Source of the DNA: a virus
Length of the DNA: 33,765 bases
Direction: 5' to 3' (one strand)
IMG/VR virus record: IMGVR_UViG_3300043411_000946
Location: 1 to 33,765 of that record
This document shows, in pieces, positions 103-33,765 of this stretch. The position numbers and the translations under genes are program-made. Each line of letters starts with the position of its first letter. The stretch's first letter is position 1. The notes below the pieces were generated by a model. That model worked only from the letters and a program-made list of their open reading frames with translations. It made no database searches and was not told where the DNA came from.

Positions 103-636
103 ATGGACATTCAAGAGTGCGTAAAGGGACCTAGAGCTAAGGCTGTTATTGTACACGAGAGGCCATACGACTACGATGAGAAGCGTGGGATCTGGATGCG
201 TCGAGTCATTGACGAGCAGGAATCCTCCAACATCGTTACGAATGCTGGTCGTGTACGAATCCACACCTATCTCTACGGGGCTGGAGGTCAGCGAGTAGGG
301 ATCGGGGCTGGGCTCAACTACATTGCCCTATCTAACAATGCAACCGCTCCTGCTCAGTCGGATACAGTCCTGACAGGGGAGATCACGAATACAGTGCCTA
401 CGGCTGGCCTACAGCGAGCACTAGGTACCGTGACTCTTCCTACTGGGTCAGGCACTCAAACGGTCATTCAGAAGGTCTTTACCTTCACGGGCACCCCAGG
501 CCCTCAAGGAGTCCAGAAGACGGCTCTGTTTGATGATGCAACAGCAGGAACTATGGCCCATGAGATCCAGTTCGCTCCTAGGACTTTGTTCACAAACGAT
601 ACACTTACTTGCACTTTCAGTATTTCCTTGTCATAA
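103..636 (+). CDS. small phage virion (tail-associated) protein
   Basis: A 177-residue protein with an ATG start behind AGGAGG. It has no signal peptide or membrane segment and is rich in Thr, Gly and beta-prone stretches after about residue 60. Its order of motifs is SNIVTNAGRVRI (about 42-53), then an alanine/asparagine-rich strand with LNYIALSNNATAP (about 70-82), then LTGEI, then a C-terminal TCTFSISLS strand. This matches the protein at 13213, which has RNLIVKDA, VLAVGTGDTG, LYSEL and EVTWRLSF in the same order. Small phage proteins of this kind commonly sit among tail fibre and baseplate genes. I read it as a structural protein of the tail periphery; the exact role is unknown. The TAA stop lies inside a 10-bp hairpin that precedes the endonuclease gene. 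Confidence 0.85.
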   Translation: MDIQECVKGPRAKAVIVHERPYDYDEKRGIWMRRVIDEQESSNIVTNAGRVRIHTYLYGAGGQRVGIGAGLNYIALSNNATAPAQSDTVLTGEITNTVPTAGLQRALGTVTLPTGSGTQTVIQKVFTFTGTPGPQGVQKTALFDDATAGTMAHEIQFAPRTLFTNDTLTCTFSISLS

Positions 637-658
637 CAAGTACTTACGGTACTTGTTA
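634..658 (+). other. 10-bp perfect stem-loop spanning the stop codon and gap before the endonuclease gene
   Basis: TAACAAGTAC (634-643) and GTACTTGTTA (649-658) are perfect reverse complements around a 5-nt loop TTACG. The left arm starts with the TAA stop of the gene at 103, and the right arm ends 10 nt before the ATG at 669. No T run follows, so it is not an ordinary intrinsic terminator. A 3' end stabiliser, an RNase site, or a structure limiting expression of the downstream nuclease are possible roles (inference). Confidence 0.7.
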
Positions 659-668
659 AAGATTCAAC

Positions 669-1553
669 ATGGACACTTACGGTCGCATTTACGGTCTACA
701 TGACCCGGCAACTGGGGAACTCAGGTACATCGGGCAGACCATCACGTCTCTTTCTAGGAGACTCACGTTCCATATCGCCCCAAGTATCCTTAAGTCTTCT
801 AGATGTCATCGGGCGAACTGGATTCTGACCTTGGTTAATGTAGGTCTTCGTCCAGTCATCAAGGAGATCGCTACAGCCTCTTCGAGGGAGGAGCTTGATC
901 GCCTTGAGGTTGAGCACATCTCCTTGGCTAGGTTGGGTCAGGTTCGTCTCGTCAACACTGATCCTGGTGGTAACTCACAATCACCTGAGCATTACAGGCG
1001 TCTAGGGGAATCGAAGAGAGGCATCCCCCGCACCCCAGAGGTACGAGCCAAAATCTCAGCAGCTAAGAAGGGCAAACCATCCTCCAAGCGTGGCCCGATG
1101 AGCGAGGAGCAGAAGGTCAAAGTCTCCGCTTCAAGGAAGGGCAAGCTTCTTGGGGCCACTCATCATCAGTACCGTGGCGACATCTCAACAGACTTCATCC
1201 TCCAGAGAATCGCTGAGGGTTGGACGAAGGTTCAGGTAGCTGAGGAGCTTGGTGTTTCCAGTACGTTCATTCACCGTAGGTTGAACCAGGCGGGGCTTAC
1301 GGGAGAGAGTCGACCCAAGGGTAAGCGAGAAGCCTGGAACAAGGGCAAGGCCCACTCAGCAGAGCATGTTGCTAACTTTGCCGCATCTAGGAGGGGTAAG
1401 GCGACCGGGACAGACCACCACTTTTACCGACATGACATCCTGGACGAAGACCTTCGTCAAAAGGTTCAGGAGGGTCTCACCCCCTCTCAGATTGCACAGT
1501 ACTACGGGGTAGCTCGAATTACTGTTGCTAGAAGACTTAGGAAAGTAGCTTAA
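669..1553 (+). CDS. GIY-YIG homing endonuclease with NUMOD3 and two HTH units
   Basis: A 294-residue free-standing nuclease. The GIY-YIG core is seen as RIYGL (6-10) and RYIG (19-22), with candidate catalytic Arg at 30/31, candidate catalytic Glu at 80 or 82 and a conserved Asn in LVNTDPGGN (about 96). Basic NUMOD3-like segments follow (about 105-160, for example GESKRGIPRTPEVRAKIS). Two helix-turn-helix units come next: about 176-207 (AEELGVSSTFIHRRL) and about 262-292 (IAQYYGVARITVARRL). Each is preceded by a similar basic stretch ending HHQYRGDI or HHFYRHDI, so the DNA-binding part is internally duplicated. The family cleaves DNA at specific sites and drives its own spread into phages that lack the gene. 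Neighbouring genes are intact, so it is not intron-borne as far as visible. The ribosome binding site is poor (AAAGA), and the next gene's site lies in its 3' end. Confidence 0.92.
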   Translation: MDTYGRIYGLHDPATGELRYIGQTITSLSRRLTFHIAPSILKSSRCHRANWILTLVNVGLRPVIKEIATASSREELDRLEVEHISLARLGQVRLVNTDPGGNSQSPEHYRRLGESKRGIPRTPEVRAKISAAKKGKPSSKRGPMSEEQKVKVSASRKGKLLGATHHQYRGDISTDFILQRIAEGWTKVQVAEELGVSSTFIHRRLNQAGLTGESRPKGKREAWNKGKAHSAEHVANFAASRRGKATGTDHHFYRHDILDEDLRQKVQEGLTPSQIAQYYGVARITVARRLRKVA

Positions 1554-1554
1554 C

Positions 1555-4500
1555 ATGGCGTACCCTCACACCCTTGTTTGGTCCGGGTACTGGAGTACGG
1601 ACTATGCAGGTTCGCCTTGGGTTGGAGAGGCGACTGCGGGAGCTAGCTCTGGTCGTAACTTAACGGAAGCTACAAACCCTCCAACCACTGGAACTGCAAA
1701 AAACAGCCACACGCCAGCTCACTTTGATGGGGTGAACGACACTCTCACTTCGGTAGAATACATAGAAGACTTCGCGACGACCTATGTTACCGTCGATGCA
1801 GTTGTGAAGATAAACAGTGCAATAGCACCAGCTGCTGTTGTCTGGGACGACCCTTGCATCATAACTGTATGGGCAACCGCAGCTTTTTCCCTTGGGGTAA
1901 CTACCTCTGGGGTCTCTTTTGGGGTTTATACTACGACAGGATATGGGCAGACGGCTTACGTGCCGTTATCTCTTGGGGTCGTACACTCTGTTCAAGGTCG
2001 GTACGATGGTACGAATTGTTCGGTACGTGTCGATGGTGGCGCTTGGGAAAATCTGGCTATTACAGACCCTCTTGTTAATGCACCAGGAGTCCAACTCCTG
2101 GTAGGAAAGGACTACGTCGCCTCTACATTTATGGATGGGGACATCTTCAGCTTAGGTGTAGCTCCATCTGCATTTTCGGACGGTACGCTTGATGCCTTGT
2201 ACGACTACGCTAGGGATCGTTACATACTCACTCCGCTCGATGCAGCTCCAGCTGGAGATGCTTCGGTCACTGCAAGCCTCGACTTACTAGGAGCCCTAGG
2301 TTCAGGTCTAACCGGAGATGCTTCGGTCACCGCAAGTCTTGATCTACTAGGAGCCCTAGACTCAGCTCCAGCTGGAGATGCTTCGGTTACTGCAAGTCTT
2401 GATCTGTTGGGAGCCCTAGACTCAAGCCTAACCGGAGATGCTTCGGTTACTGCAAGCCTCGATTTGATAGGGTCTCTTATTCCACTCGATGCCACCCTAA
2501 CTGGAGACGCATCGGTCACTTCAAGTCTTGATCTGTTGGGAGCCCTAGATGCGGCCCTCAGTGGGGATGCTACTGTCAACTCAAGCCTCGACTTACTAGG
2601 AGCCTTAGACTCAAGCCTAGCCGGGGATGCAACTGTTAACTCAAGTCTTGATCTACTAGGAGCCTTAGACTCAAGCCTAACCGGGGATGCCTCTACCACT
2701 TCGAGTCTTGATCTGTTGGGAGCCCTAGACTCAAGCCTAACCGGGGATGCTTCTGTAAATGCAAGCCTCGATCTTATGGGTAGCGTTAGCCTAGATTCAA
2801 GTCTAGTAGGAGATGCCTCTGTTACTTCAAGTCTTGATCTGTTGGGAGCCCTAGATGCGGCCCTCAGTGGGGATGCTACTGTCAACTCAAGCCTCGACTT
2901 ACTAGGAGCCTTAGACTCAAGCCTAGCCGGGGATGCAACTGTTAACTCAAGTCTTGATCTACTAGGAGCCTTAGACTCAAGCCTAACCGGGGATGCCTCT
3001 ACCACTTCGAGTCTTGATCTGTTGGGAGCCCTAGACTCAAGCCTAACCGGGGATGCTTCTGTAAATGCAAGCCTCGATCTTATGGGTAGCGTTAGCCTAG
3101 ATTCAAGTCTAGTAGGAGATGCCTCTGTTACTTCAAGTCTTGATCTGTTGGGAGCCCTGGACGCTACCTTAGCAGGGGGTGCCTCTGTAAATGCGAGTCT
3201 TGATACCAATTTGGTTGCAGCTCTAGTAGGGGATGCCTCTGTCACAGCTAGTTTGAGCTTACTGGGAGCTATAAGCTCTACAGCAAGTGGGGATGCTTCA
3301 GTAACCTCAACTCTAACTTTAGTAGGTACTTTGGCGTCAGCTCTTGTTGGAGGTGCGATTGTCACCTCAAGCTTGAGTACGTTAGGGGTTGCAGTGCCCC
3401 TAGATGCTACGTTAGTTGGGGGGGCTACGGTTGGTGCAGCGCTGGGGCTAAGTGCTAACATGTTTGCTACGTTAGATGGGTCAGCTACAATTGGGACCCT
3501 GTCTCTAACTACGGTATCCAGCTTTCTATCCGAGTATCTCACAGTCTCTGAGGAAGTTGGGTGTTCAATTCAAGGTACTGTTTCAGTAGCGGATACGTTA
3601 ACGCTATTCGAGGCTCTCCGTACAGGGCTCTCCTTGTTCGAGAGTCAAAGTAGCACCTCGCTTCAGGTCGACTTCCCAGAGGAGCTAAGACTCGATGGGG
3701 TATCGGATGTTACAAACTACTCTGTAGCTAGCTATGGGGGTGGATTTCCTATCTCCATCCTATCCGCTACTCCAATAATTCAGACAAAAAAGTCTGGAGC
3801 ACAGGGGCAAGTTGTGGAGTCAGCTCCTGGAGTACTGTACTCTAGAGTATTTGACCTCTACTCTGATACGGCCATTCCCTCGGATATCGGGGGTTACCTA
3901 GTGCTAGGTTCAGAGTCGTTCCAAGTTACCGCTGTAGCGGGGTCTCAAGTTACCGTGAGTCGTCCTATCCCAATCTCTGGGTTGAATGGGAATTACGTTC
4001 CAGGGTCTGGGTTCACTGCTGGAACAGGTCAGCTTGTTTGGAGTATCACCACCGGAGCCTTAGGGGCCACACTGACAGTCACTGAAGGTACAGATGGGGC
4101 AAGCTATCTAGGTAGAGTGACCCACCTTCAAAGAGCTGTTAGCGGTCAAGTGTACTCCAGTCCCAGCTCGTTTACGTTCCAGGCTATTGGCACGAAGCCA
4201 AGAGTTTCTAGCGTTCAATTGTCCTCAGAGGGTACCCTACTCATTACCTTCAATGAGGATATGCGAATCGACGCAGCACTACTGGATGTTGCTGAGTACG
4301 CAATTACGGGCCCTACTAGAGTGCAGGTTGAGTCTGTCTCTATGGTAAGCTCACGAAGTATAGCTCTTTTGACTTCAGGACTTGGAGTTGGGAGTTACAA
4401 TCTAACGGTCAACGCAACAGGTACTCCTAAAGACCTAGCTGGTAACCCCATTGACCCTACCTTCAATTTGGCAGCATTCAGTGGGTCTATTCCAATTACC

Positions 4501-13212: not shown

Positions 13213-13854
13213 ATGAAGGTAAATGAAGCTCTTAATCAGTTAGCAAGCCGCTTTTTTGGTGCTCTTCGTCCAAAGTATGAGGAGAATGCCAGACTAGGTA
13301 TCCGAGGGGATGTCTTTATCTCCTTGAGAGACGGGGCAAGTGGTGAACTTCAAGACTACCGAGAACGTCGGAATCTTATCGTAAAGGATGCCTCGATCCT
13401 CGTTGCTCGTCTGATGAAGGACAGCGCAGAGCCCACGAAGGGTATTTTTGTTCTAGCTGTAGGTACGGGCGATACTGGATGGAACCCTCTGGCTCCTCCT
13501 GCTCCTACAAACACTCAGAGGGCTCTTTACTCTGAGTTGACTCGTAAGACGTTTTCGCAGACCAGCTTCATTGACGCGGCTGGAATCCCGACTGCTACTC
13601 CAACAAATGTTGTGGACTTCACAGCAATCTTCACGGAGGCTGAAGCTGTAGGGCCACTTGTCGAGATGGGTTTGATTGGTGGGAACATCTCCACCAACCT
13701 TGCGGTTCGCAACCCAGTCCTTCCCCCGAATGGGCCTTACAACCCTCTGGTAGACCTCACTACCAAAGAGACTTTGTTGAATTTCCTTTCGTTTCCGATC
13801 ATAAGTAAGCCAGCTACTTCAAGTCTTGAGGTAACGTGGCGACTTTCGTTTTAG
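13213..13854 (+). CDS. small phage virion protein, relative of the gene at 103
   Basis: 213 residues, ATG start behind GAGGAG. Residues about 50-75 carry RERRNLIVKDASILVARLM, then VLAVGTGDTGWNP (about 80-92), RALYSEL, a strand DFTAIFTEAEAVG, the pattern VEMGLIGGN and a closing strand SSLEVTWRLSF. This is a familiar order for small phage tail-region proteins, and it parallels the 177-residue protein at 103. The ends look complete, so the endonuclease gene that follows has not disrupted it. Role: probably a minor structural part of the fibre or baseplate (inference). Confidence 0.87.
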   Translation: MKVNEALNQLASRFFGALRPKYEENARLGIRGDVFISLRDGASGELQDYRERRNLIVKDASILVARLMKDSAEPTKGIFVLAVGTGDTGWNPLAPPAPTNTQRALYSELTRKTFSQTSFIDAAGIPTATPTNVVDFTAIFTEAEAVGPLVEMGLIGGNISTNLAVRNPVLPPNGPYNPLVDLTTKETLLNFLSFPIISKPATSSLEVTWRLSF

Positions 13855-13871
13855 GTTGGTTGGATAGCGAT

Positions 13872-14831
13872 ATGAAAACCTGTTCTAAGTGCGGACGACC
13901 TGAAGGGGAGGTGACGTTCCAAGTTGAGAAGACTCGGAACGGAGGTCTCCGTTTGCGTCCTGATTGCAAGGAGTGCCGCAAGACGTACCAAGCTTCATTT
14001 CGAGCTGACAACCCCAATTACTTCACTGACTACTATGTCAACAACAAACGTCAGGTGAACGATAAATGCGTGGCGATCAATCGCCGTCGCCGTCACGAAC
14101 GTTACGGTCTCATCGCGAAGCTCAAATCAAATCCATGCGTGGATTGTAAGGGTTCCTTCCTCTCGTGTGTCATGGACTTCGACCACCGAGACCGCTCAAC
14201 CAAGGTGATGGACATTTCGATCATGGTGAGGCGACTCATCCCGTGGGAACGAGTCATAGAGGAAATTTCAAAGTGTGACCTCGTGTGCGTTTGTTGCCAT
14301 CGATTACGTACCTACCACGGCAACAACAGCTACAAGACACGACTCTTTGAGCACCATAGCCTTGTTTTGAGCACGCTCAAGTCAACCACGCCATGTCTTG
14401 ACTGCGGGGGTAAGTTCAGGTCATGTCAGATGGACTTTGATCACGTTACCCTTGACAAGGTATCCAATATTGCATGCCTGGTCGGAGGCTCTACTAAGGG
14501 ACTTCTTAGTGAGATTGCCAAGTGCCACCTAGTTTGCGCAAATTGTCATCGAGTTCGGGGTAGTACTGGCGTTCGACCGGATAGTCCAGGTCACTCAAAG
14601 GACTTGGTTAGTCAATTTCAAGATCTGATGAAAGACACACCTTTCCCCAAGGATGCCAGAGTCAACCCTTTTCCAAATCCTGAGCTATTAGGGACTGTAC
14701 CAGATAAGGAACTTGCTGTGATGACCGGCATTTCCCAATCGATGGTCGCATGGTATCGACGCAAAGCTGGAGTTGTTCTGAACCGTCAAGGTCAGCCCGT
14801 AAATAATCGTTCAATGGTGGAGACTCAGTAA
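13872..14831 (+). CDS. HNH homing endonuclease with two tandem HNH domains
   Basis: A 319-residue protein starting MKTCSKCG, the usual opening of phage HNH homing nucleases. An in-frame GTG at 13836 (GAGG upstream) would add 12 residues and overlap the previous gene. Order: N-terminal zinc-knuckle (Cys 4, 7, 32, 35); first HNH (Cys 89/92, Asp-His 104-105, Cys 139/142, His 143); second HNH (Cys 175/178, Asp-His 190-191, Cys 222/225, His 226); C-terminal helix-turn-helix about 278-300 (LAVMTGISQSMVAWYRRK). Both nuclease copies keep metal-binding cysteines and the catalytic His, so both may be active. The usual family member has one HNH. It lies between intact structural genes, supplies the ribosome binding site of the next gene and overlaps it by 1 nt (TAATG). 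Role: site-specific DNA cleavage for its own spread. Confidence 0.92.
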   Translation: MKTCSKCGRPEGEVTFQVEKTRNGGLRLRPDCKECRKTYQASFRADNPNYFTDYYVNNKRQVNDKCVAINRRRRHERYGLIAKLKSNPCVDCKGSFLSCVMDFDHRDRSTKVMDISIMVRRLIPWERVIEEISKCDLVCVCCHRLRTYHGNNSYKTRLFEHHSLVLSTLKSTTPCLDCGGKFRSCQMDFDHVTLDKVSNIACLVGGSTKGLLSEIAKCHLVCANCHRVRGSTGVRPDSPGHSKDLVSQFQDLMKDTPFPKDARVNPFPNPELLGTVPDKELAVMTGISQSMVAWYRRKAGVVLNRQGQPVNNRSMVETQ

Positions 14832-17464
14832 TGGGAACGAAAAACTACGGACCAGCAGTTAGTGGCTTCCTCGACTCTGAGGGTAGGAATTGGGAGAACC
14901 CGGTTTTCCAAGCAGGTAAGCCTGTTCTGGATAAGGAGCTGAATCTCAGTGAGGACATTGCTAACTCGTTTAGCTTGGGGCTCACGAAGCAGCTAGCCAC
15001 CTCAGGGTGGCTGACCGCAGACCACTTGAATAAGTCCAACCCAACTGCGGCAATGTTTGTGTCCTCAGCGACAGTAAACACTCTTGTCCTTGCGAACAAC
15101 CTTAAGGCGCTAGTTAACGGGTGGTTCTTAGATGTGGCTTCCACTGGGAACTTAACCCTAAATCAGATTAGTCTTGGGGCAGGGCCTGTAGGTAATGGAG
15201 CCAAGCGTACGGACCTCGTAATCCTTGAGGTTTGGCGCAAGCTTGTCTCAGCCTCGCCCAGTACGGATGGTAAGAGCCCACTAGGTAGAATCTGGAAGAA
15301 CGGTAACGTCAAGATTCAAGCTGCGGATGACGCAGTACTGAACTTTGCGGATGACATACTGGATGCGGTAGTCGCCTCTGAGACCGCAAAGAGAGTCCAG
15401 ATTCAATATAGACTGAGGGTTATCTCTGGGATAGACCTCTTTGCTTACCCAGCGGGCATTGACGACCCTGCCATTGTTGCAAATTCCACACCTGCTGGAG
15501 GAATTGCTGACGGCGTTGCAACGCTCTTCACTTACACAAATCAAAGCGCGAATGGCGACCCAGGTCTCTGGAGAGCTGGGGATGGAATTCCGAGCAACAC
15601 GATAAGCTCTGTTGACGGGTACATCTACGCGATTCCTCTATGTGCTGTTTTTAGGCGCAACACCACTGCTTGGGATCGCAACCTAAACCAAAATGGTGGC
15701 GCACCTTCTCCTGGCCCATCAACTCGGCCTGATGGCTATCTAACGGATGTCCTAGTCCAAAAGGATGTCGTAGACCTACGACAGGTGACTTCCGTACGAG
15801 GTTGGGAGAACTACCAGGAAATCGGGGAGAAGAACTTCAACTTCCTCCTTGACAACGCTTTGAAAACAGAGTGGGGAACATCTACCCTAGGTGGAGGTTC
15901 GGTAGGACACACATTTCTATGGGCGGATGAGATTGGAATTCTACCTGGGGACAGCGTAACGACTGGAGATACTCCAGGAGCCCAATTACTTGGTCAATTC
16001 GATTGTACTCGCAGGTTCATCTCGGATCGTTCCATCTACGAGGTTCTCACCTTCGTGGTGGCTCCTGGGGACCCACAAGTATCTACCGGCACCTGGCAAG
16101 CAGGGACTATTGTAACTGTAAACCCAACGATTCTAGCTCAGTATCCTTTCTCTGGTGCTGCCGTAGGGTTCATCAATCGAGCCCCAGCTGGGACGAGGAT
16201 TCTAGACCTACTAGGAGCTAGAATTGGCGGAGTCCTTGGAGGGGAAAAGTACCTTGACGTTGGGATTATCCAAGCAACAGCCCCCGCAACAACCTCTTCT
16301 GTTTACCCGGTAACGAATGTGACAGGACTTGGAGCGTACCCTCCTGGTAACGTAGCAATCACTCTAGGTACTCCTCCAATTGGTGGCTTGACTACGGAAG
16401 CAATCTACATTGACTTTCTTGTTGCCTACCCTTCCGGGGCAGGGTTGTCAAAGACCCCAACCGCAGACTTTGGGGCAGCTAGCTTTGAGGTAAACAACCC
16501 TATTGCCCTGACTGCTGGTGTACCTGTATCCTACGCTGCAATGCAAACCCGAGCCTATGACTATGCACATAGAGAGGCTCAGATTCAGTACAAAACTTCG
16601 ACGATCACTACAACCTTCTCAGCGTACTCGACCGTAAATCCTGGATCGAAGTACTTGATGCCTGAGCGAGTGCTCAATCTTGTCCAAGTTCGAGTCAATG
16701 GTGGAGCCCTTCCTGGTGTTGGTGGGACGGTAGACGCTAGTGGTCGATTGCTGACGCTTGTTGGCGGTACTACGGCCCCTGGGGATGTTGTAGCTGTAGA
16801 CTATGAGGCGATTCGACCTATGCCTCAGTGCGGCGTACAGATGACCCTATACTACGAGGCACGAGCAGCTCAGACTGTTCGCTCAAGCCTGTTAGGTACC
16901 AGCCAGGTTCTCCAACCACGTTGGGTCTCTCCCTTCTTGTACGTCTTTACTTCAGCCTCAGGGTCGCAAGGGGAAAGCTATCCCTTCCCTTATGGGTATG
17001 TTCAGACAGGTGGTCTGAACAAGTCTTCTGGTTCGTTTACTGGAGAGCATGAGCTAGACGGACCTCCCGAAATTTTCATCTCTGACTTTAACGCAAGTAC
17101 TGGCTTTTTGAGAGTACCTGTAGTACTACCCTATTCGCCAACAGACGAGGTGACTCTAACTCGTGCGCTAATCGATGCAGATATCGAGGATAGGACCTAC
17201 TTCACTGGCTCTTCATCTAGTTACAAGCCCAGTGCATTCGCGCAGAGTCTATCGGATGAACGAGTCCACAAGGTAGTGCTACCTATGGTCATGGAGACGA
17301 CGGTAGACACGACCTTAGGGCGTAAAGGGACTTTGGTCCTAGTCCTACTAAGCAGGTGGGCTGAATTTGACTCAGAGAACAGCGTCAAGTTTCTTGCGTC
17401 AGGTAACTCCACAACTGCAAGTATCTTCCGCCTCTCTGGAAATCTTCTCAACAGGAGAATCTGA
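14831..17464 (+). CDS. large phage tail/baseplate-type protein (877 aa), paralogue of the gene at 27201
   Basis: ATG overlaps the previous TAA; GGAG in the nuclease gene's 3' end is the ribosome binding site. The N-terminal domain carries QAGKPVLDKELNL (27-39), then LVILEVW, RIWKNGNV, a VQIQYRLRVISG strand, GDPGLWRAGDG (near 243), SVDGYIYAIPLCAVFRRN and a DLRQV motif. These appear in the same order in the protein at 27201. The LD-x-ELN opening is common in phage tail fibre and baseplate-associated proteins. The C-terminus (LVLVLLSRW ... SIFRLSGN) also matches the end of the 27201 product. No membrane or enzymatic motif is evident. Role inferred: structural, linking fibres to the tail. Ends with a TGATG overlap into the next gene. 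Confidence 0.88.
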   Translation: MGTKNYGPAVSGFLDSEGRNWENPVFQAGKPVLDKELNLSEDIANSFSLGLTKQLATSGWLTADHLNKSNPTAAMFVSSATVNTLVLANNLKALVNGWFLDVASTGNLTLNQISLGAGPVGNGAKRTDLVILEVWRKLVSASPSTDGKSPLGRIWKNGNVKIQAADDAVLNFADDILDAVVASETAKRVQIQYRLRVISGIDLFAYPAGIDDPAIVANSTPAGGIADGVATLFTYTNQSANGDPGLWRAGDGIPSNTISSVDGYIYAIPLCAVFRRNTTAWDRNLNQNGGAPSPGPSTRPDGYLTDVLVQKDVVDLRQVTSVRGWENYQEIGEKNFNFLLDNALKTEWGTSTLGGGSVGHTFLWADEIGILPGDSVTTGDTPGAQLLGQFDCTRRFISDRSIYEVLTFVVAPGDPQVSTGTWQAGTIVTVNPTILAQYPFSGAAVGFINRAPAGTRILDLLGARIGGVLGGEKYLDVGIIQATAPATTSSVYPVTNVTGLGAYPPGNVAITLGTPPIGGLTTEAIYIDFLVAYPSGAGLSKTPTADFGAASFEVNNPIALTAGVPVSYAAMQTRAYDYAHREAQIQYKTSTITTTFSAYSTVNPGSKYLMPERVLNLVQVRVNGGALPGVGGTVDASGRLLTLVGGTTAPGDVVAVDYEAIRPMPQCGVQMTLYYEARAAQTVRSSLLGTSQVLQPRWVSPFLYVFTSASGSQGESYPFPYGYVQTGGLNKSSGSFTGEHELDGPPEIFISDFNASTGFLRVPVVLPYSPTDEVTLTRALIDADIEDRTYFTGSSSSYKPSAFAQSLSDERVHKVVLPMVMETTVDTTLGRKGTLVLVLLSRWAEFDSENSVKFLASGNSTTASIFRLSGNLLNRRI

Positions 17465-32057: not shown

Positions 32058-32534
32058 ATGGCCATGGACCTAGATACCGTAATGAATGCATTCGTCAATG
32101 TGCAGACGATAATTATCTGCCTCTCAATCTACTTGATGACTTACGTGATTCGTAAGGTTGTTGAAGGGGTTTGGAAGGGAGCTAAGACAAATCGTATCTG
32201 GCGAGAGGTATGGCTGCCTATCGGACCTATCGTAAACGGAGGTCTTGTTGGGGTCATGGCCAAGACGTTCGTTTGGCCTACCGTCGTAGATACCTCCCTT
32301 TCGGGTAGGATCATGTATGGTGCGATTTGCGGTGTATTCTCTGCTCTGCTTTACAGCAGGGTTAGGTCCTTCATCCAGAGCACCCCAGCTCAATCGAAGG
32401 GTCATGGGGGTTTACTAAAGCCAGTAAACCCCCATGACCCACCTCCAGCGGATGAGGATACCTCGGACTCGGATCCTCCTCCAGCGGATGACCTAACCCC
32501 GGAAACTCCTCCACCACCAGACGAGAAACGGTAA
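32058..32534 (+). CDS. small membrane protein, holin-like candidate (158 aa)
   Basis: ATG at 32058, one base after the previous stop, with GAGGAA in the upstream gene. Apolar segments lie at about 15-32 (VQTIIICLSIYLMTYVIRKV), 52-70 (LPIGPIVNGGLVGVMAKTF) and 83-103 (GRIMYGAICGVFSALLYSRV), suggesting two to three membrane spans. The tail from about 113 is proline- and acid-rich, with a doubled 14-nt DNA repeat (32442-32455 and 32478-32491) encoding PPAD. Small size, several spans and a charged tail fit phage holins, but no sequence family is recognised and another membrane role is possible. A perfect 18-bp hairpin lies where the membrane part meets the tail, encoding GHGGLLKPVNPHDP. Confidence 0.82.
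   Translation: MAMDLDTVMNAFVNVQTIIICLSIYLMTYVIRKVVEGVWKGAKTNRIWREVWLPIGPIVNGGLVGVMAKTFVWPTVVDTSLSGRIMYGAICGVFSALLYSRVRSFIQSTPAQSKGHGGLLKPVNPHDPPPADEDTSDSDPPPADDLTPETPPPPDEKR
32399..32440 (+). repeat. perfect 18-bp inverted repeat (hairpin) inside a coding gene
   Basis: GGGTCATGGGGGTTTACT (32399-32416) and its exact reverse complement (32423-32440) flank a 6-nt loop AAAGCC. The structure is in frame and does not break the protein. No T run follows (ACCTCC), so it is not a normal intrinsic terminator. It would form a very stable RNA stem, suitable for RNase III processing, ribosome slowing or transcript protection. It could also be a short palindromic insertion. The function is unknown. Confidence 0.95.
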
Positions 32535-32543
32535 GTGAACTCC

Positions 32544-33077
32544 ATGGCTGACGAAGTCTCGTTTGGTGCCCGTCTTTGGGCCTCAGTAAAGTCTGGTCTT
32601 AGTTGGCTAGGCGTAAAAGTTCTGGGGCCCATTCTGGTTGTACTTCTCGTTATCGTGGCCGTGATTCTTGTGTCCATGGGGTTCAAAGAGCTTCAAATTG
32701 GTGGGCTTATTGGACGACTGTTAGGTAGGAACTCCCCTCAAAAGGGGTCCGTGGATGTGACCAACACTATCGACCCCAATAGGGTTGGTCCTGACGGTAA
32801 GCTGATTCAGCCGAACACTCCTGACACGAAGGGTCAGACTCAAGCGGTTGTTGTGCCGATAAATGAACCTGGGTTGTTCTCCGACCCAAATAAGGTGGTC
32901 TTTACTCCTCCAGGAGCTGACAAGCCGATTGAAGTAGTACTTCCGGATGGAGTTACGTCTTCTGACGTGGCTCAAGTTGTGGTTATTGAGCCAAACATCA
33001 CGGTTGTTACAGTTCGTGATAGCTCTGGGGTGCCAACATCAAAGATTGACGACCTATTGCGAAAGTACTCACTTTGA
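32544..33077 (+). CDS. single-span membrane protein of unknown function (177 aa)
   Basis: I prefer the ATG at 32544 (MADEVSFGARLW). An in-frame GTG at 32535, abutting the previous TAA, would add three residues, and neither has a strong ribosome binding site. Residues about 26-47 form one strong membrane span (LGPILVVLLVIVAVILVSMGF), preceded by an amphipathic, basic start. The remaining 130 residues are polar with a proline-rich linker (TIDPNRVGPDGKLIQPNTPD) and a beta-type end (IEVVLPDGVTSSDVAQVVVI). The topology, a short N-terminus, one span and a long soluble tail, is compatible with an inner-membrane spanin or other envelope protein, but the long coiled-coil expected of many i-spanins is not visible. 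It pairs with the upstream multi-span gene. Its end overlaps the next gene. Confidence 0.78.
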   Translation: MADEVSFGARLWASVKSGLSWLGVKVLGPILVVLLVIVAVILVSMGFKELQIGGLIGRLLGRNSPQKGSVDVTNTIDPNRVGPDGKLIQPNTPDTKGQTQAVVVPINEPGLFSDPNKVVFTPPGADKPIEVVLPDGVTSSDVAQVVVIEPNITVVTVRDSSGVPTSKIDDLLRKYSL

Positions 33078-33765
33078 CTCATCCCTGCGTGTACTTGATT
33101 ACTTGTAGCTATAACGGTAAGTTGTATGTAGGTAAGACCACCAATGCTAAACTGCGTTGGACCCAGCATATGTCAGCTTCTCGGAAGCCAGCCCCTCGGA
33201 TGGTTATCTCGCGTGCCATGCGAAAACATGGAGTGGGTAGTTTCACATTTGAGGTGTTAGAAACCTTTCAAACAGAAGAAGACGCTCTTTGGTGGGAGGG
33301 TTGGTACATTGAGTACCTCGGATCTCACCTTAGGGGAGTAGGGTATAACCTGGATTCTGGTGGCCATGGTGGGAAAAAACTAAGCTTAGCTACTCGACAG
33401 AAGCTGTCTAAGTTGCACCAAGGCAAAAAGCTATCCCATGAGACTCGTGCAAAATTATCGACAGCAAAGTTAGGAAAGCCCCAAACCTTAGAACATATCG
33501 AAAAGGCTGCTGCAACAAGACGTGGAAAGAAACGATCTCCAGGTACCATAGCTAAGTTACGTGCTGCGAATATAGGGAAGAAGCTATCAGTCGAGCATAG
33601 GGCTAAGCTATCAGAGTCCCACAAAAATAGCGAAGCTAACATTGTACAGATTGCAAAATTGGCAACCGCTAACAGAGGGAAAAAACGATCTCCTGAGGCC
33701 CTTTTCAAAATGCGTGTAGCTCAACAGGCAAGACGTACTAAAGAGAGAGTTGGAGGACAAGTGAT
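33074..33765 (+). CDS. GIY-YIG homing endonuclease with NUMOD3 repeats (partial, cut by the window)
   Basis: Translating from a TTG at 33074, which overlaps the previous TGA, gives 230 codons with no stop before the edge. The GIY-YIG core is CVYLI (5-9) and LYVGKT (17-22), with candidate catalytic Arg 28, candidate Glu 75 in WWEGWYIEYLG and Asn 92 in GYNLDSGGHGG. From about 100 on, at least four lysine-rich NUMOD3-type units follow (for example KLSHETRAKLSTAKLGK, KLSVEHRAKLSESHK). The start codon is uncertain: a GTG at 33089 would open just before YLITC. The gene is visibly richer in A and in lysine codons than its neighbours, a sign of separate origin. It is free-standing after an intact gene. 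Role: site-specific cleavage and self-spread. Confidence 0.88.
   Translation, partial: MTHPCVYLITCSYNGKLYVGKTTNAKLRWTQHMSASRKPAPRMVISRAMRKHGVGSFTFEVLETFQTEEDALWWEGWYIEYLGSHLRGVGYNLDSGGHGGKKLSLATRQKLSKLHQGKKLSHETRAKLSTAKLGKPQTLEHIEKAAATRRGKKRSPGTIAKLRAANIGKKLSVEHRAKLSESHKNSEANIVQIAKLATANRGKKRSPEALFKMRVAQQARRTKERVGGQV

What the first reader, a model, noticed from the sequence alone, without database searches (positions are those of the whole stretch)
32399..32440. Perfect 18-bp hairpin embedded in a holin-like gene
Two exact 18-bp arms around a 6-nt loop are far beyond chance in a 34-kb window (random expectation for one such pair is well below one in a million). It sits exactly at the junction between the membrane part and the acidic tail, and has no T run, so it is not a standard terminator. 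A stable RNA stem there could control the amount of this membrane protein or of the next gene, for example by RNase III processing or ribosome slowing. It may also be a palindromic insertion that created the PHDPPP linker.
Basis: partly seen in the sequence, partly recalled or inferred. Interest (0 to 1): 0.65.

Follow-up and report, generated by a model that had tools for sequence, protein, structure and literature searches.

The report
Chance-made palindrome inside phage holin gene
A real, perfect 18-base-pair hairpin sits in the floppy tail of a phage membrane (holin-like) gene; relatives of the gene lack it, and this phage group has many such hairpins inside genes, so it most likely arose by a DNA-copying slip and is not a regulatory switch.

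Summary
The hairpin is real: 18/18 Watson-Crick pairs, 6-nt loop, at 32399-32440, about 9e-6 expected in this window for loops of 3-20. It encodes residues 114-128 of a predicted holin (phrog_1299), at the start of a tail predicted to be disordered. It has no T run, no second copy and no target-site duplication. All seven distinct relatives of the gene lack it, and tail lengths in the closest two do not suggest a 14-codon insertion. Across about 1.07 Mb of this huge-phage group, perfect hairpins inside genes are common: 29 with arms of 11 bp or more against 2.3 expected from synonymous shuffling, and 3.5 times the rate in six other phages. The excess is strongest for perfect arms; G-U pairs are not significantly favoured over A-C mismatches; homologues do not keep the pairing. 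That pattern fits template switching at quasi-palindromes better than selection for an RNA stem. My best explanation is a recent coding palindrome in a tolerant linker. A regulatory mRNA role is not excluded but has no support here. Side finding: four distinct relatives (one weaker fifth) carry a hairpin just upstream of the holin start codon.

The parts
32399..32416 (+). left arm of the perfect inverted repeat
32417..32422 (+). 6-nt loop AAAGCC
32423..32440 (+). right arm of the perfect inverted repeat
32058..32534 (+). predicted holin (158 aa; relatives start at the ATG at 32064); the hairpin encodes residues 114-128 KGHGGLLKPVNPHDP
   Evidence: phrog_1299 'holin' E 1.8e-5; relatives 35-68% identical; helices end at residue 106 (MDLD numbering), then pLDDT below 50
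32535..33077 (+). downstream 180-aa protein with one N-terminal hydrophobic stretch, next to or near the holin gene in relatives

Best explanation
The hairpin is a coding palindrome made at the DNA level. During phage DNA replication the polymerase briefly switched template at a short imperfect inverted repeat, so one arm was copied as the exact reverse complement of the other (quasi-palindrome correction, also called sequence-directed mutagenesis). It persists because the affected codons lie in a disordered, poorly conserved linker between the last membrane helix and the Pro/Asp/Glu tail of the holin. No regulatory function is needed to explain it. Shown: perfect arms, open frame, disordered variable linker, absence in relatives, and a group-wide excess of perfect hairpins in genes without signs of selection on RNA pairing. 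Inferred: the template-switch event itself at this site, and that it is recent.
For: (1) All seven distinct homologues lack the pairing: 0-4 Watson-Crick pairs of 18 in the five that align here by tblastn; the rest by alignment. (2) In the window and seven related contigs, in-gene hairpins with arms of 11 bp or more number 29 against 2.3 expected from synonymous codon shuffles, P about 4e-22; six other phages (T4, lambda, phiKZ, phage G, Tunturi_5, LR745208) give 7 against 2.8; rate ratio 3.5, Fisher P 0.001. (3) The excess is steepest for perfect arms: 34 vs 1 with 0 mismatches, 135 vs 66 with 1, 935 vs 724 with 2; G-U (32) and A-C (22) mismatches do not differ significantly, P 0.22. (4) Where both sides of a pair changed in a homologue, 34.6% still pair against about 33% by chance. 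(5) The hairpin codes for a region with pLDDT below 50. (6) Published precedent: template switching turned a 5-bp-arm repeat in yeast REG2 into a perfect 16-bp arm/5-nt spacer repeat inside the coding sequence (PMC8604942); the mechanism was proposed from bacteriophage work and can make perfect hairpins in one event (PMC8794818).
Against: No relative is close enough to show the imperfect ancestor of this palindrome. A test for one arm being ancestral (unequal identity of the two arms to homologues) gave no signal across the class, though homologues at about 60% DNA identity have little power for it. An 18-bp arm is longer than any other in-gene case found in the relatives (maximum 15 bp, or 14 bp if the L011 case at the holin start codon is left out). 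Gene calls were heuristic.
Confidence: 0.63

Rival explanations
1. A functional mRNA stem in the holin message that sets holin level or timing: RNase III cleavage, transcript-end protection or pausing, or slowing of ribosomes before the tail.
For: Very stable fold (-35.7 kcal/mol, z -8.3). It lies in a lysis-type gene where dosage matters. Several relatives carry strong hairpins near the same gene, at its start codon.
Against: Pairing absent in all seven distinct relatives. It lies at codons 114-128, too far in to cover the holin start, and 94 nt upstream of the end of the gene. No T run. No Rfam match. No pairing-selection signal in the class.
Confidence: 0.2
2. A small palindromic mobile element (REP/MITE-like or byp-like hairpin) inserted in frame into the gene.
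For: Sharp ends, 42 nt (14 codons, in frame). Homing endonuclease genes are nearby (GIY-YIG at 33077-33763).
Against: Single copy in the record. Arms with 3 or fewer mismatches occur only three times in the relatives, all in one genome, none of them part of a pair. One exact 18-mer match in IMG/VR, in an unrelated gene without the second arm. No target-site duplication. No gain of 14 codons relative to the nearest relatives. No stop codon inside, so no need for bypassing.
Confidence: 0.07
3. A DNA-level site: operator, cruciform or recombination site recognised by a dimeric protein.
For: Perfect symmetry at DNA level.
Against: Unique in the record and not found at this place in relatives; inside a gene.
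Confidence: 0.05
4. An assembly or amplification artefact (fold-back chimera) in the metagenome contig.
For: The window is a single virus fragment record.
Against: The frame is kept exactly through the hairpin, and the tail, stop codon and next gene continue normally. Similar hairpins occur in contigs from other metagenomes.
Confidence: 0.05

Closest known systems
Perfect inverted repeats in coding genes made by template switching (yeast REG2, PMC8604942; RNA-gene stems, PMC8794818)
   Same: Perfect arms (16 bp vs 18 bp), short spacer (5 vs 6 nt), inside an open frame, absent in relatives, frame kept.
   Different: The ancestral imperfect form is known for REG2 and not here; the host is a phage, not yeast.
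Excess of short inverted repeats in prokaryotic coding sequences attributed to sequence-directed mutagenesis (Ladoukakis and Eyre-Walker, as discussed in PMC4060949)
   Same: Excess of perfect inverted repeats in coding DNA over a null model.
   Different: They reported 6-9 bp repeats; here the excess is measured at 9-13 bp arms and this case has 18 bp.
Coding palindromes in Nematomorpha mitochondria (PMC6649704)
   Same: Perfect palindromes inside translated genes; template switching is suggested there too.
   Different: Those reach 284 bp and some recur at the same places in several species; this one is single and not conserved.
byp elements of Magnusiomyces mitochondria and T4 gene 60 bypassing (from memory; byp-type elements also mentioned in PMC6649704)
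   Same: A hairpin within a gene.
   Different: No stop codon, no take-off/landing pair noticed, no extra length; the frame is open.

Membership tests
Template-switch (quasi-palindrome) coding inverted repeat | Perfect arms with a short spacer | tested here: met
   18/18, 6 nt
Template-switch (quasi-palindrome) coding inverted repeat | Lineage-specific: absent in homologous genes | tested here: met
   absent in seven distinct relatives
Template-switch (quasi-palindrome) coding inverted repeat | An ancestor or relative with an imperfect repeat at the same place; one arm unchanged | tested here: inconclusive
   linker cannot be aligned reliably; class-wide arm-asymmetry test showed no signal
Template-switch (quasi-palindrome) coding inverted repeat | Excess strongest for perfect arms, no RNA-specific preference (G-U vs A-C) | tested here: met
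   34 vs 1, 135 vs 66, 935 vs 724; G-U 32 vs A-C 22, P 0.22 (class level)
Intrinsic terminator | Stem followed by a run of T | tested here: not met
   ACCTCCAG on +, TTCGATTG on -
REP/MITE-type palindromic repeat | Several copies in the genome | tested here: not met
   one copy in the record, no intact copy in relatives; the record is a fragment
REP/MITE-type palindromic repeat | Target-site duplication at the ends | tested here: not met
   no direct repeat of 3-9 bp directly at the ends
RNase III processing site | Cleavage of the stem in the transcript | not testable with these tools
   needs RNA end mapping
byp / programmed bypass element | Non-coding gap interrupting the frame | tested here: not met
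   frame open through the hairpin; tail length like relatives
Holin (phrog_1299) | Match to the family profile with several membrane helices | tested here: met
   E 1.8e-5 over residues 26-114; helices 13-36, 44-65, 79-106; lysis function not tested; no Pfam match above cut-off

The most novel reading that the evidence does not exclude
This huge-phage lineage replicates with an unusually high rate of template switching at quasi-palindromes, so that long perfect hairpins are continually written into its genes (about 34 per Mb of coding DNA, 3.5 times that of six other phages), rewriting short protein stretches such as this holin linker.
Probability: 0.3. Interest if true: 0.45.

Novelty: new member of a known kind. 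Interest (0 to 1): 0.25.

Why it matters
As a single feature it matters little: it is a clear example of how a striking hairpin in a gene can arise without selection on RNA. If the group-wide excess holds up with more genomes, these phages would be a good natural system for measuring how template switching changes coding sequence, and hairpins in their genes should not be read as regulatory without further proof.

Tried and rejected
Exact arm search in IMG/VR gave one hit in an unrelated gene without the second arm, about what chance would give. No related DNA or holin protein in the phage collection and none in genome contigs. Rfam: nothing. Terminator scan: nothing at the hairpin. Arm asymmetry to find the donor arm: no signal. 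Codon usage of the two arms did not single out a donor arm: one rare codon on the left (TTA 0.05), one uncommon on the right (CCC 0.12). A promoter-like motif GGTTYGTTTTATR upstream of holin in some relatives did not recur beyond shuffled expectation. A hairpin in the downstream gene of L003/L008 was put down to the protein motif N-T-V-D-x-D-R-V, whose codons are naturally near-palindromic (by eye; not tested further).

Full report
Observation. The inverted repeat is exactly as described: arms 32399-32416 and 32423-32440, 18 of 18 Watson-Crick pairs, loop AAAGCC. The next longest perfect hairpins in the window have 10-bp arms. Expected number in a sequence of this length and composition: 5e-7 for loop 6, 9e-6 for loops 3-20. 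As RNA it folds to -35.7 kcal/mol, z -8.3. It is not a terminator: neither strand has a T run after the stem, and nothing in Rfam matches.

Setting. The window is one IMG/VR fragment of 33,765 bases. One of its tail-fibre-like proteins matches huge phages (LR745208.1, 485 kb; Bacillus phage G), and its relatives include contigs of 286 and 512 kb. The gene holding the hairpin (32058-32534) matches phrog_1299 'holin' (E 1.8e-5). AlphaFold2 on eight relatives gives helices 13-36, 44-65 and 79-106, and pLDDT below 50 for residues 109-152 and 154-156, so the hairpin encodes the first part of a tail predicted to be disordered (residues 114-128 in the longer numbering).

Relatives. Seven distinct homologues were found: directly, through the conserved downstream gene, and by profile search in the same records. 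L014 and L015 carry the same holin protein and are counted once. None has the hairpin at this place. The membrane part is conserved (nearly all of the 23 invariant columns in A3); the linker is not. The tail after the conserved R-x-R-S-x-x-Q-S is 50 aa here and 51 and 54 aa in the two nearest relatives (counted), so there is no sign that 14 codons were added. There is no target-site duplication and no second copy of the palindrome in the record; arms with up to three mismatches occur three times in one relative, none paired with another. The single exact match of the arm in IMG/VR lies in an unrelated gene without the second arm.

A class of such hairpins. I read seven related contigs (about 1.04 Mb: six whole, 400 of 513 kb of the seventh) and counted perfect hairpins (arms of 11 bp or more, loop 3-12) within genes, using heuristic gene calls and shuffles that keep each protein and its codon set. 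In genes of at least 150 aa the window and relatives give 29 against 2.3 expected; T4, lambda, phiKZ, phage G, Tunturi_5 and LR745208 (whole or in part) give 7 against 2.8. The rate ratio is 3.5, Fisher P 0.001. One of the 29, in L011/G004, is on an ORF called on the opposite strand and is really the hairpin at the holin start codon. The window's own hairpin is another of the 29.

Function or mutation? Three class-level tests. First, in homologous genes the pairing is not kept: where both sides of a pair changed, 168 of 486 still pair (34.6%, chance about 33%; arms of 9 bp or more). Second, the excess is greatest for perfect arms (34 vs 1) and falls off fast with mismatches (135 vs 66; 935 vs 724). 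Third, mismatches that an mRNA stem tolerates (G-U, 32) are not significantly commoner than the mirror type that it does not (A-C, 22; P 0.22). This is what DNA-level copying of one arm from the other predicts, and selection for an RNA stem does not. These tests speak for the class; they do not prove the history of this one hairpin. A fourth test, for one arm being ancestral, gave no signal, but homologues at about 60% DNA identity have little power for it.

Literature. Template switching between short inverted repeats was first proposed from bacteriophage work (cited in PMC8604942). In yeast it turned a 5-bp-arm repeat into a perfect 16-bp/5-nt repeat inside REG2, changing five amino acids. 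It can create perfect hairpins in a single event (PMC8794818), and it is one explanation offered for the excess of inverted repeats in prokaryotic coding sequences; selection for stable mRNA is the other (PMC4060949). Long coding palindromes are known from Nematomorpha mitochondria (PMC6649704).

Verdict. The most likely account (0.63) is a coding palindrome written by template switching into a tolerant linker. A regulatory stem (0.2) remains possible because no close relative or RNA data are available. The finding is a new member of a known kind. The group-wide excess is the more interesting part, and it needs more genomes.

Noticed in passing
L010 about 2135-2180, L011 3540-3574, L012 about 2960-2988, L014 102-130 and L015 3463-3491; weaker in L013: Just upstream of the holin start codon, four distinct relatives (L014 and L015 share one holin) have a strong hairpin, with different sequence in each; in L011 the ATG overlaps the end of the 3' arm and the stem contains the GAGAGGG ribosome-binding-like sequence. 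This could be a terminator or start-site lock before the lysis gene. The window lacks it.
   Followed up: partly
L122 3452-3498 and 8733-8778; L126 980-1034 (LR745208.1): Perfect hairpins with 20-22 bp arms in another huge phage, in or beside open frames of 97-144 codons on the minus strand.
   Followed up: no
G002 45134-47779 (minus strand); homologous gene in window 14831-17464: A 13-bp palindrome over the peptide EFDAENSVKF is nearly kept in G001 (12/13) and partly in the window (9 plus 2 G-U); probably because of the peptide, but it is the one in-gene hairpin with kept pairing.
   Followed up: partly
window 669-1553, 13836-14831, 33077-33763: Three homing-endonuclease-like genes (phrog_314 match; HNH; GIY-YIG with NUMOD3) lie between tail and lysis genes.
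   Followed up: no
window 634-658: A 10-bp perfect hairpin (TAACAAGTAC/GTACTTGTTA) overlaps the stop codon before the endonuclease gene at 669.
   Followed up: no
window 2253-3204: Tandem repeat of 60 bp (15 copies) and 306 bp (3 copies, 90% match) inside a 2282-aa structural protein (GDASVTASLDLLGALDS units).
   Followed up: no
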